64,000 nt of DNA, taken from positions 62,001 to 126,000 of the forward strand of contig CADCFG010000003.1 in NCBI GenBank assembly GCA_902800625.1, read 5' to 3'. This DNA is from an uncultured Eubacteriales bacterium. Its GTDB lineage: Bacteria; Bacillota; Clostridia; Christensenellales; Aristaeellaceae. The position numbers and the translations under genes were made by a program. Below, piece by piece: positions 53,326-57,000 of the stretch; position 1 is the stretch's first letter; the number at the start of each line of letters is the position of its first letter. Under the pieces are notes generated by a model. It had not been told where the DNA came from. It worked only from the letters and a program-made list of their open reading frames with translations, and made no database searches.

Positions 53326-53568
53326 TTATTTGATCTCCTGTTCCAGCTCGTCAAATATCTTCGCGCTGAAAAACTCCCCTAAAGTCATATCCAGCCCATC
53401 ACACAGCTTTTTGATCACATTGATGCTCAATTCTTTGCGCCTCTCATCCAACATACTATAAACCGTAGATGGTGTCACGCCTGACAAATTCGCCAGTTCA
53501 TTCGGCCTCATATTCCGCTGCGCCATGATCTCTCTGAACCGCTTAACCACTGCGTCCTTTACGCTCAT
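53326..53568 (-). CDS. Small XRE-type HTH regulator
   Basis: An 80-residue Cro/C1-type repressor-like protein, MSVKDAVVKRFREIMAQRNM, with HTH NELANLSGVTPSTVYSMLDE. It has no extra domain. It is divergent from a lipoprotein gene, and the spacer holds three copies of a palindrome (ACGCAnnYGCGT) suited to it. The ATG at 53568 has GAGGGG with 8-nt spacing. Probably an autoregulated local repressor. Confidence 0.88.
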   Translation of the reverse strand: MSVKDAVVKRFREIMAQRNMRPNELANLSGVTPSTVYSMLDERRKELSINVIKKLCDGLDMTLGEFFSAKIFDELEQEIK

Positions 53569-53604
53569 TTTCATCACCCCTCTAATAAGAGGATAGAAAA
53601 TTTT

Positions 53605-53675
53605 ACGCAATCGCGTATACGCACTTGCGTTTTCATCGGAAATAAAGTATAATGTTCCTATGAACGCACCTGCGT
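53605..53675. promoter_or_regulatory. Three ACGCAnnYGCGT operators with promoter of the lipoprotein cassette
   Basis: Copies lie at 53605-53616 (ACGCAATCGCGT), 53619-53630 (ACGCACTTGCGT) and 53664-53675 (ACGCACCTGCGT). The plus-strand promoter is TTGCGT (53625-53630), 17-nt spacer, TATAAT (53648-53653); the second operator covers the -35 and the third lies just after the start site, the layout of a repressible promoter. Confidence 0.75.
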
Positions 53676-53698
53676 ATTTTGAGAGGGGGAGAATGCAT

Positions 53699-53896
53699 AT
53701 GAAGCGCTTGATGGTCTTGTTTCTGTTGGTTACCTTGCTCGCTGGCATCCTTGTTGGTTGCGGCAGCAACTATTCCTCTGCCAAGCCTGGCCAATGCATG
53801 TGGTGTGACGGCTATGGCTATGCGTCGTATTATGATTCTGATGGAAACCTGCGTTCAAAGACTTGTTCACACTGCGGCGGTACAGGTCGCAGCTGA
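53699..53896 (+). CDS. Small lipoprotein with DnaJ-type CxxCxGxG zinc motifs
   Basis: A 65-residue exported lipoprotein: lipobox LLAGILVGC near residue 21, then a domain with CMWCDGYGYA and CSHCGGTGRS, two CxxCxGxG-type motifs like the cysteine-rich zinc repeats of DnaJ. GGGGGAGA precedes the ATG at 53699. First gene of a three-gene cassette controlled by the neighbouring XRE protein. Function unknown; metal binding at the cell surface is plausible. Confidence 0.78.
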   Translation: MKRLMVLFLLVTLLAGILVGCGSNYSSAKPGQCMWCDGYGYASYYDSDGNLRSKTCSHCGGTGRS

Positions 53897-53949
53897 AATC
53901 GAAGGAAGTGCTGACTGAACAATTGCCGAAATCGAAGGAGGAATGTCTC

Positions 53950-54138
53950 ATGTTCAACCGCAAAAGCCGTGTTTTCCGTATGCTATTGCTCAGTATGATC
54001 TGGCTCTTTATAGTTGTCGTTTTCTCCGCCTGTTCCAGCTCCGGTTCTTCATCCGGTTACTCAAGCTCGAGGCGGTCCTATGATGAAGCCCTCTTGAATG
54101 AAGCGCGCCGGGGATATGAATCCGCTTTTGGCAACTGA
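53950..54138 (+). CDS. Small Ser-rich lipoprotein
   Basis: A 62-residue protein: Arg-rich start (MFNRKSRVFRMLLLSMIWLF), membrane/lipobox region ending VVFSAC, then a Ser/Gly/Tyr stretch (SSSGSSSGYSSSRRSYDEAL) and a short acidic helix. AAGGAGG precedes the ATG at 53950. It lies 53 nt after the Cys-rich lipoprotein gene. No family recognised. Confidence 0.65.
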   Translation: MFNRKSRVFRMLLLSMIWLFIVVVFSACSSSGSSSGYSSSRRSYDEALLNEARRGYESAFGN

Positions 54139-54160
54139 GCAACAAGAGGAGGTATTCCAG

Positions 54161-54334
54161 ATGATCAGGTGTCCATCTTGTGGTCGAGAAATCGCCAATA
54201 ACGCGAGCAAGTGTCCTTATTGTGGGCACAGCTTCTTTGCAACCAATGTAAATGCAGGCTGTTTGACAGCATTGATTGTTGGCGGTGGTTTCCTGCTATT
54301 CATCATGTTAATTGCAAGCTTCTCAAGTCACTGA
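54161..54334 (+). CDS. Small zinc-ribbon membrane protein
   Basis: A 57-residue protein with an N-terminal zinc ribbon (MIRCPSCGREIANNASKCPYCGH would be its core: CPSC and CPYC pairs) followed by one membrane helix (ALIVGGGFLLFIMLIASF). AGAGGAGG precedes the ATG at 54161, 22 nt after the previous stop. Third gene of the cassette. Confidence 0.75.
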   Translation: MIRCPSCGREIANNASKCPYCGHSFFATNVNAGCLTALIVGGGFLLFIMLIASFSSH

Positions 54335-54366
54335 TTCCACAAAGCAGCATTTTTCTCTCCCTCCCC

Positions 54367-54602: not shown

Positions 54603-54926
54603 ATGAAGAAGATCTTTGCTCTGATGCTGGTTGTTATGCTGCTGGCTGTTGCTCTGACCGCTTGCAAGAAGGCCGAGCAGAAGACCGAAGAGGCCGCTGC
54701 CGCCGTCGAGGAGAAGGTTGAAGAGGCTGCTGACGCTACCGAGGAGAAGGTTGAAGAGGCTGCTGAGGAGACCGCTGAGAAGGTCGAAGAGGCTGCTGAG
54801 GAGACCGCTGAGAAGGTCGAAGAGGCCGCTGAGGAGACTACCGAGAAGGTCGAAGAGGCTGCTGAGGGCGCCGCTGAGGCCGCCGAGGGTGCCGTCGAAG
54901 AGGCTACCGAGAAGACCGAGGGCTAA
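54603..54926 (+). CDS. Lipoprotein with 11-residue Glu/Ala helical repeats
   Basis: A 107-residue lipoprotein: signal and lipobox (MKKIFALMLVVMLLAVALTAC), then tandem units EKVEEAAEETA repeated about five times, ending EEATEKTEG. The 11-mer period and Lys/Glu/Ala composition are those of LEA-like or apolipoprotein-like amphipathic helices. It should sit on the outer face of the membrane as a rod. The codons here include more GCT/GTT than neighbours, hinting at high expression. Function unknown. Confidence 0.8.
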   Translation: MKKIFALMLVVMLLAVALTACKKAEQKTEEAAAAVEEKVEEAADATEEKVEEAAEETAEKVEEAAEETAEKVEEAAEETTEKVEEAAEGAAEAAEGAVEEATEKTEG

Positions 54927-54977: not shown

Positions 54978-55066
54978 GCGCCTCAAGCCCGGTATAAATT
55001 GACTTCACCGGCGGAATATGCTATAGTCAATGCAAGGCAATACCCACACAGAAGGGGCGATTTCCA

Positions 55067-56968
55067 ATGAAAAAGACTATGCTGCCACGCTGGCTGGCGA
55101 TGCTTTTGTGCCTGGCGCTGCTGGGCACGGCGGCCCTGGCGGATGAGACCGAGTTCGTCGAGGCCCCCGTCTAGGAGCAGGCGGAGTTCGCGCTGGGCGA
55201 GGCGGACGCAGGCGCCGCGTCCACCGACGACCCTTTCACAGAGGATCTGCCCGCGGAGCCCGAGCTTCCCGGAGAGCAGCTGATCGCCGCGCCCGAGGCG
55301 GAATCCGAGTCCCCCGCCGAGACCGCGCTGGAGGCCAGCCCCGAAACCCTCGTCGACCCGGAACCCGCGTCCTCGGATTCCGGCGTGCGCAGCTTTGCCC
55401 AGACCGCCGCTGTGGCCACCGAGACCTGGCAGGATGCGAATCTGGTCCGCGCGGAGGGCTTCACCGGCGCGCTCGGCGAAGTGACCGGCGTATTGACGCT
55501 GGCAAACGTGCAGATCGACGGCAAGCCGGCCCGGGAGGTCGACCTGGGCGGGTATTTCGCCCTCGGCCCCACCGGCGCCATCCGCATCCAGGACGGCGCG
55601 GCGCTGGCCCTGAGCCTGGATGCCTTCAGCTTCAACAAGGGCGACAAGAAGACGCTCACCGCCACGCTGAACGGCGCAAAGCTGTCCGCGAAGAAGGCCA
55701 AGTGGAAGAGCTCCGACGGCAAGGTGGCCAGCATCAAGAACGGCAAGGTCACCGGCAAGAAGGCCGGCGCCGCCGTGATCACCGCCAGCTATAAGGGCGA
55801 AACCGCCCGCTGCCTGGTGGTGGTCACCAACTACAAGAAGGTCAAGTCGCTGAAGCTGAACAAGAAAAAGCTGACTCTGGCGCTGTACGCCGCGCAACCG
55901 CTGAAGCTGACCATCAAGCCCGCGGACGCCTTCGAGCCGGGCATCACCTGGAGCTCCTCCAAGCCCAATGTGGCCAGCGTGGACCAGGACGGCCTGGTGG
56001 CGGGCCTCGCCGGCGGCACCGCCACCATCACGGTGAAGTCCGCCAACGACAAGAAGGCCACCTGCAAGGTGACGGTGAAGGAGATCAAGCCCAAGAGCAT
56101 CGCGCTGCCCAAGGCCTTCGTGCGCATCGTCCCCGGCGAGACCTTCTCCGCGAAGGCGACTTTGACGCCCGCCACCGTGTCCAACCCCACCGTGAACTAC
56201 ACCAGCAGCACCCCCGCCGTGGCCACTGTGGACGGAAGCGGCAACATCACCGGCGTCGCCCGGGGCACGGCCGTCATCACCGCCGTCACCGCCTCCAACG
56301 GCAAGAAGGCCAGCTGCAAGGTGAGCGTGCTGGAACCTGGCGCGAAGCGGCTGGAGGGCCTGATCATCGGCATCAACCCCGGTCACCAGGCCGTCGGCAT
56401 CAACAAGCTGTATCCCATGGCCCCCGGCTCCGGCAGGAAGGGCAAGGGCATGCGGCCCGGCGCGCGCGGCCACTTCACCAAGGTCTGCGAGCGCGACACC
56501 ACGCTGGCGGTGGGCCTGAAGCTGCGCGACCTGCTGGAGGCGGAGGGCGCCACCGTGGTGATGACCCGCACTACCAACGATGTGATGCTGACCAACATCG
56601 ACCGGGCGAAGATGCTGAACAAGGCGGGCTGCGACGTGGCCCTACAGCTGCACTGCGACGCCGTGAACAACTCCGGCCCGGAGGGCTGCCACGCCATCTA
56701 GCGCACGAATACCGAGCACGCCAAGGCCAACAAGGCCCTGGCCAAGGCGGTGGTTTCCGCCGTGAAGGCCAACTGCGGCTGCAAGACCCGGGGCTGGAAG
56801 CCCAGCACCGACTACATGAGCCTGAACTGGACCTCCACCCCCTCCATCCTGCTGGAGATGGGCTTTATCTCCAACCGCAAGGAGGACCGCCTGCTGGCCA
56901 GCGACGACTACCGCAACAAGATGGCCGAAGGCATCTTCAACGGCCTGTGCAACTACTTCGGGAGATAA
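55067..56968 (+). pseudogene. N-acetylmuramoyl-L-alanine amidase with Ig-like domains, interrupted by two in-frame TAG codons
   Basis: One continuous frame of 633 codons from ATG 55067 (GAAGGGG upstream) to TAA 56968 is broken only by TAG at 55172-55174 (codon 36) and 56699-56701 (codon 545). It encodes a signal peptide (MKKTMLPRWLAMLLCLALLG), an acidic linker, three Big_2-like domains (about 180-425) and an Amidase_3 domain whose ligands are intact: GINPGHQ, CERDTTLAV, LQLHCDAVNN and LLEMGFISN. Everything else in the frame looks functional. Either it is a very young pseudogene, or the amber codons are read through. Both TAGs could arise by single changes (for example GAG or CAG, and TAC). 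Confidence 0.8.
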
Positions 56969-57000
56969 AAAAAGCGCCGACTCTTGTCGGCGCTTTTTTT
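56969..57000. terminator. Bidirectional terminator after the amidase gene
   Basis: AAGCGCCGAC/GTCGGCGCTT stem with A-run and T-run on the two sides, serving this gene and the convergent one. Confidence 0.9.

What the first reader, a model, noticed from the sequence alone, without database searches (positions are those of the whole stretch)
55067..56968. Cell-wall amidase frame interrupted only by two TAG codons
A 633-codon frame with intact signal peptide, three Ig-like domains and all catalytic residues of an Amidase_3 enzyme contains TAG at codons 36 and 545 and no TAA, TGA or frameshift. A decaying gene would normally also show frameshifts or lost motifs. Other genes in the window end normally with TAG, so the code is not globally changed. 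Possibilities are readthrough by a suppressor tRNA or pyrrolysine system, a switchable gene, or a very recent pseudogene.
Basis: partly seen in the sequence, partly recalled or inferred. Interest (0 to 1): 0.75.

Follow-up and report, generated by a model that had tools for sequence, protein, structure and literature searches.

The report
Recently broken cell-wall amidase gene
A bacterial gene for a predicted secreted cell-wall-cutting enzyme contains two premature stop codons while the sister species' copy is intact; it is most likely an ordinary, very young pseudogene, and searches of its incomplete genome assembly found no special system for reading through the stops.

Summary
Window 55067-56968 is one 633-codon frame (signal-peptide-like start, three Big_2 stretches, Amidase_3) broken only by TAG at codons 36 and 545. 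The sister genome G015 (contig matches record RUG11065) has an intact, 90% identical copy with sense codons at both sites. The exact 438-aa stretch between the TAGs is in a database cluster seen on 11 contigs, so an error of this one assembly is unlikely.

Amber-only is weak evidence: 72% of single-base nonsense changes of the sister gene give TAG, so two TAGs have a chance of 0.52. No amber decoding was found: 0 of 28 genus genomes pass the PylS cut-off, RF1 is intact, and none of 45 named tRNAs has a CTA anticodon, though tRNA-Tyr is missing from the assembly. Of 107 sister ORFs traced onto the window's contig, only this gene has internal TAGs.

Codon models show no relaxed selection on this branch, so the stops are very recent or some full-length product is still made. 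In-frame stops under purifying selection are already reported as widespread (PMC7918605). Best reading: a young nonsense pseudogene.

The parts
54999..55027 (+). sigma-70-like promoter (TTGACT-17-TATAGT, extended -10)
   Evidence: consensus scan, (1 found, shuffles mean 0.1); the same letters in the sister; function not tested
55050..55057 (+). Shine-Dalgarno-like AGAAGGGG, 9 nt before ATG
   Evidence: read directly
55067..56968 (+). amidase gene, 633-codon frame with two internal TAG
55067..55141 (+). signal-peptide-like region (about codons 1-25)
   Evidence: read from translation; no signal-peptide program was run
55172..55174 (+). premature TAG, codon 36, in the acidic linker after the signal-peptide-like region
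   Evidence: sense codon in sister
55385..56701 (+). 438-aa mechanical ORF (GTG start) between the stops, ending at TAG545; lacks the signal-peptide-like region
   Evidence: identical after the first residue to database protein P0002
55841..56071 (+). best-scoring of three Big_2 (Ig-like) stretches, residues 259-335
56447..56950 (+). Amidase_3 domain, residues 461-628
56699..56701 (+). premature TAG, codon 545, inside Amidase_3; downstream lies the conserved LLEMGF stretch with the predicted catalytic Glu
   Evidence: catalytic role recalled from Amidase_3 family knowledge, not tested
56974..57000 (+). inverted repeat plus T run after the gene (likely terminator), nearly the same in the sister
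   Evidence: read directly; not listed by the scan

Best explanation
This is most likely a very young nonsense pseudogene: a Big_2/Amidase_3 cell-wall amidase gene that carries TAG at codons 36 and 545, while the sister species' copy has no internal stop. Shown: the two stops, the otherwise open frame, the promoter-like, ribosome-binding and terminator-like sites, the intact sister copy, and the exact 438-aa inter-stop stretch in a database cluster seen on 11 contigs. Inferred: translation stops at codon 36 and releases a 35-residue fragment. The 438-aa stretch has no signal peptide and ends before the predicted catalytic glutamate, so neither piece would be an active exported amidase. The loss is probably tolerated because the gene is patchily present in the genus and a second Amidase_3 gene without stops exists. 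The second stop probably arose after the first, with too little time for frameshifts or motif loss.
For: Ortholog without stop in sister G015, 90% identity. Of 12 loci of this gene type found in 28 genus genomes, 9 have no stop and 3 are broken: G000 two TAG, G016 one TAG (gene cut by contig end), G007 a frameshift. P0002 equals the stretch between the stops; its cluster stands for 5 sequences on 11 contigs, the longest 217,865 bases, longer than the window's own contig of 162,652. RF1 intact. No PylS over cut-off in 28 genomes. No CTA anticodon among 45 named of 46 tRNA matches; no new tRNA in laxer or class-II searches. Of 107 sister ORFs traced onto the contig, 6 meet an inner stop, and both TAGs are in this gene. 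In 400 kb, TAG makes up 11 of 53 stops with same-frame coding-like flanks against 60 of 366 stops after coding-like stretches. Second Amidase_3 gene on C28 without stops. P(both TAG) 0.52.
Against: No relaxation is detectable. ML omega on this branch is 0.061 (codons 107-633; nominally below background, 2dlnL 5.15) or 0.111 (all; 0.76), background 0.13-0.14; omega 1 is rejected (2dlnL 38.6 and 33.9). A neutral last part of the branch is disfavoured at 5% (107-633) and 10% (all), but not at 2% and 5%. By interpolation up to about 3-6% is allowed, roughly 11-22 neutral substitutions and 0.3-0.55 expected further stops, so a second stop is somewhat lucky. Outgroup branches are long, which weakens these numbers. 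The conserved motifs seen in the alignment remain. Expression and activity are untested.
Confidence: 0.77

Rival explanations
1. Low-level readthrough: near-cognate tRNAs decode the two TAGs often enough that a trickle of full-length amidase is made and selected; the stops act as down-regulating alleles.
For: Purifying selection not detectably relaxed; no net frameshift; motifs present; published claim that in-frame stops with dN/dS below 1 are widespread in bacteria and many exist for short periods (PMC7918605; abstract and 12 of 21 found passages read).
Against: Two stops in series would multiply the loss; the same signal is expected if the stops are simply young; the sister lacks both stops, so the sites are not conserved; amino-acid changes lean to this branch (29 against 16, 17 ambiguous); no RNA or protein data. 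The same paper assumes that most such events have no functional recoding.
Confidence: 0.11
2. Dedicated amber decoding (suppressor tRNA or pyrrolysine system) in this organism.
For: Both stops are TAG; tRNA-Tyr and a GAT-anticodon tRNA-Ile were not found in the assembly, so its tRNA set is incomplete; the class-II tRNA search scored only 150 of 392 candidates; a second genus member has a TAG two aligned codons away in the same linker.
Against: No PylS over cut-off in 28 genomes; RF1 present; no CTA tRNA found; 22 of 107 G000 ORFs end in TAG, and of 107 sister ORFs traced onto G000 one is interrupted by TAG; amber-only expected by composition.
Confidence: 0.03
3. Population polymorphism or switchable allele: intact and broken copies coexist in the species.
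For: A metagenome assembly would give only a consensus; an intact allele near 90% identity could be hidden in the P0001 cluster (16 sequences, 89% to the window).
Against: No full-length protein nearer than 89% among the 120 listed of 1601 hits. Switch elements were not searched for.
Confidence: 0.05
4. Assembly or base-calling error at both sites.
For: The genome is a draft of 64 contigs and reads were not available.
Against: The exact 438-aa ORF is in a cluster on 11 contigs, one longer than the window's own contig; both internal TAGs among 107 traced ORFs fall in this one gene.
Confidence: 0.04

Closest known systems
N-acetylmuramoyl-L-alanine amidase, Amidase_3 (Pfam PF01520), e.g. CwlV 1jwq and germination-specific amidase 7rag
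   Same: domain matched over residues 461-628 when TAG is read as X; 1jwq and 7rag align up to residue 631
   Different: two internal TAG; added signal-peptide-like start, acidic linker and three Big_2 stretches
Big_2/Amidase_3 ortholog of sister genome G015 (contig matches RUG11065)
   Same: same architecture and flanking sequence, 90% identity
   Different: no internal stop
In-frame stop codons under purifying selection in bacterial genes (Belinky et al. 2021, PMC7918605)
   Same: nonsense codons, including an orthologous TAG in Paenibacillus, in genes with dN/dS below 1 (abstract and passages)
   Different: their example site is shared across genomes; here neither site is shared with the sister
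Amber recoding in gut phages (e.g. PMC10607447, PMC11210395; search listing with abstract starts only)
   Same: TAG inside ORFs
   Different: phAss-1 has TAG in 41 ORFs by its abstract; here one of 107 traced ORFs, and no suppressor tRNA seen

Membership tests
Pseudogene (nonsense type) | premature stop truncating a frame that is intact in relatives | tested here: met
Pseudogene (nonsense type) | relaxed selection after inactivation | tested here: inconclusive
   no relaxation in codon models, up to about 3-6% of the branch may be neutral; parsimony, codons 107-633, this branch: sister: ambiguous, nonsynonymous 17:9:6, synonymous 17:13:15
Pseudogene (nonsense type) | no functional full-length product | not testable with these tools
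   needs proteomics or reporters
Amidase_3 enzyme | Amidase_3 profile over cut-off | tested here: met
   136.9 bits against cut-off 27 with TAG as X
Amidase_3 enzyme | single uninterrupted frame through the catalytic C-terminal part | tested here: not met
   TAG at codon 545 precedes LLEMGF
Pyrrolysine decoding | PylS present | tested here: not met
   0 of 28 genus genomes over cut-off; 1 of 14 control genomes over it
Amber suppression or reassignment | tRNA with CTA anticodon | tested here: inconclusive
   none among 45 named tRNAs, none added (150 of 392 candidates scored in 46); tRNA-Tyr not found in the assembly
Amber suppression or reassignment | TAG depleted as terminator and frequent inside genes | tested here: not met
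   22 of 107 G000 ORFs end in TAG; of 107 sister ORFs traced onto G000 one has internal TAG; 11 of 53 against 60 of 366

The most novel reading that the evidence does not exclude
The gene is still alive: both amber codons are read through at low frequency, so the stops act as a double brake that keeps a potentially self-lysing secreted amidase at trickle level, and a similar amber in the same linker of a second species is a parallel case.
Probability: 0.1. Interest if true: 0.5.

Novelty: new member of a known kind. Interest (0 to 1): 0.14.

Why it matters
It is a clean example of how a bacterial gene may die: two point mutations, sister copy intact, flanks intact. It also shows that 'only TAG' is a poor signal for recoding in a gene whose codons mostly mutate to TAG. 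If readthrough were shown, it would support the published claim that in-frame stops can be tolerated regulatory alleles.

Tried and rejected
Pyrrolysine: weak PylS matches (about 19-24 bits, cut-off 178) occur in 26 of 28 genomes. I judge them other class II synthetases but did not examine them. Suppressor tRNA: RF00005 at E 0.001 and E 10, ARAGORN on these hits, a Tyr anticodon-loop pattern (two matches, no tRNA) and a class-II tRNA model (150 of 392 candidates scored) gave no CTA tRNA. An ARAGORN tRNA-Leu(CAG) on C1 aligned as repeat-like sequence and was dropped as a false call.

Widespread in-frame stops: a first comparison with the sister gave 41 in-frame stops (22 TGA, 11 TAA, 8 TAG) in 105 ORFs; 28 ORFs had a stop. 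I rechecked 23 of these 28. 4 of 23 have at least half of their differences at codon position 3 (the amidase among them); of the other 19, 18 peak at position 1 and are judged antisense shadows, and one (o27) shows small frameshifts. With a third-position filter, 6 of 107 sister ORFs meet an inner stop in G000 and 3 of 107 match in more than one frame. Besides the amidase, four of the six have the stop at codons 22-60, which I take for start choice or frame change without examining each, and one is antisense to the lipoprotein gene. In the reverse direction 3 of 107 G000 ORFs meet an inner stop in G015 and 4 match in more than one frame. So a few other broken genes on either side are possible.

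Conserved stop site: the TAG of G016 lies two codons from TAG36 in the aligned linker, so it is judged a separate event. The chance of a nonsense change falling within two codons is 0.07-0.09, computed after the fact.

A wider family search (300 genomes, at most 4 candidates scored per genome) added one more long relative without stop (G269). Structure prediction was not run because the domains are clear from profiles. Strain-level alleles could not be fetched.

Full report
Observation. The + frame 55067-56968 reads through 633 codons with '*' only at codons 36 and 545, both TAG, before the normal stop. With TAG as X, Pfam finds three Big_2 stretches and Amidase_3 over residues 461-628, and Protein Data Bank amidases such as CwlV (1jwq) align up to residue 631. 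A promoter-like site, an AGAAGGGG ribosome-binding site 9 nt before ATG and an inverted repeat with a T run after the gene are in place. Under table 11 the frame breaks into a 35-codon start, a 438-aa GTG-started ORF ending at TAG545 and a 72-aa tail ORF.

Is it real DNA? The protein search returned P0002, identical to the 438-aa stretch after the first residue. Its cluster stands for 5 sequences on 11 contigs, the longest 217,865 bases, longer than the window's contig of 162,652. So at least one other contig carries this cluster's protein. Cluster members may differ by up to 10%, so this is strong evidence, not proof, for each stop in each contig. The nearest full-length protein, P0001, is 89% identical. 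An intact allele of this very species could be hidden in that cluster, but none is listed among the 120 shown of 1601 hits.

Relatives. The window lies in G000, a 3.41 Mb, 64-contig, 94.8% complete genome. One search covered the 28 genomes held for the genus (up to 45 candidates scored per genome; the match list is cut). Eight genus orthologs matched in one piece have no stop (G015, G005, G009, G003, G011, G013, G008, G017; some matches begin after the signal peptide), and G020 has a longer uninterrupted relative. Three are broken: G000, G016 (one TAG, gene cut by the contig end) and G007 (frameshift between two matched pieces, in a 67% complete draft). G010 shows a contig-end fragment. In the other 15 genomes the listed matches are other Amidase_3 or Big_2 proteins. 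G000 has another Amidase_3 gene on C28 without stops. So this gene type is patchy and has been broken more than once (inference).

Amber-only is not special. Over all single-base changes of the sister gene, 72% of nonsense outcomes are TAG, so two independent stops are both TAG with probability 0.52.

No sign of amber decoding. PylS: none of 28 over the cut-off, 1 of 14 controls over it. RF1 is intact. Of 46 tRNA matches, ARAGORN names 45, none with CTA. A laxer search adds 3 weak places, none a tRNA by ARAGORN, and a class-II tRNA model adds no new place, with 150 of 392 candidates scored. tRNA-Tyr and a GAT-anticodon tRNA-Ile were not found, so the tRNA set is incomplete. 107 ORFs of sister contig C4 whose differences favour codon position 3 were traced onto the window's contig (117 kb). 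Six meet an inner stop more than 20 codons from either end (4 TGA, 2 TAG, 1 TAA); both TAGs lie in this gene, and 3 ORFs match in more than one frame. In the reverse set, 22 of 107 G000 ORFs end in TAG, and 3 meet an inner stop in G015. Over 400 kb, stops flanked on both sides by same-frame coding-like sequence are TAG in 11 of 53, against 60 of 366 for all stops after coding-like stretches; the 53 were not cleared of antisense frames.

Selection. Pairwise dN/dS to the sister is 0.315 over 623 codons, 0.226 over codons 107-633 and 0.145 after TAG545. A codon model on four taxa puts omega on this branch at 0.061 (codons 107-633) or 0.111 (all), background 0.13-0.14; omega 1 is rejected with 2dlnL 38.6 and 33.9. 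With a neutral last part of the branch, 2dlnL against none is 2.15 at 2% and 5.42 at 5% (107-633), or 3.39 at 5% and 7.37 at 10% (all). By interpolation about 3-6% is allowed, roughly 11-22 neutral substitutions. In the other direction, polarised amino-acid changes are 29 on this branch, 16 on the sister's and 17 ambiguous. Several of the 29 hit positions at which all 17 other rows agree on the sister's residue (137, 223, 328). Parsimony with six outgroups, codons 107-633, gives nonsynonymous 17:9 with 6 ambiguous and synonymous 17:13 with 15 ambiguous; over all codons 27:19 and 20:18. Outgroups are distant, so branch estimates are rough. In sum, the stops are young or the product still matters; these data cannot separate the two.

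Interpretation. The simplest account is a very recent nonsense pseudogene. The first stop, in the linker after the signal-peptide-like start, would abort export. The second lies before the predicted catalytic glutamate of Amidase_3 (role recalled from family knowledge). Readthrough with function is the main rival. It is a published general claim: PMC7918605 reports widespread in-frame stops in bacterial genes with dN/dS below 1 and says that many such events exist for short periods (abstract and 12 of 21 found passages read). The recoding papers were seen only as a listing with abstract starts.

Novelty. Nothing here needs a new mechanism. The paper searches were only.

Noticed in passing
L050 1501-2175 (G016:C80:10517-11191): The ortholog in another species of the genus also has one in-frame TAG in the acidic linker just after the signal-peptide-like start, two aligned codons from TAG36; a similar Glu/Ala-rich lipoprotein-like ORF lies upstream.
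   Followed up: partly
L040 (G007:C52): The ortholog in G007 is split into two frames by a frameshift near the start of the amidase domain; the assembly is a 67% complete draft.
   Followed up: partly
window about 53567-54340: Stretch with small zinc-ribbon-like ORFs (e.g. 53660-53896, 54098-54334) that does not align with the sister at this place, while the sequence from about 54340 onward does; possibly a lineage-specific insertion.
   Followed up: no
window 54603-54926: Lipoprotein-like ORF made of a Glu/Ala/Lys-rich repeat whose repeat stretch differs in length from the sister's.
   Followed up: no
G000 whole assembly: tRNA-Tyr and a GAT-anticodon tRNA-Ile were not found in an assembly scored 94.8% complete.
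   Followed up: partly
window 54983-56473 (- strand) and several places on G000:C3: Long antisense ORFs are common here; a naive comparison with the sister makes them look like stop-interrupted genes.
   Followed up: yes
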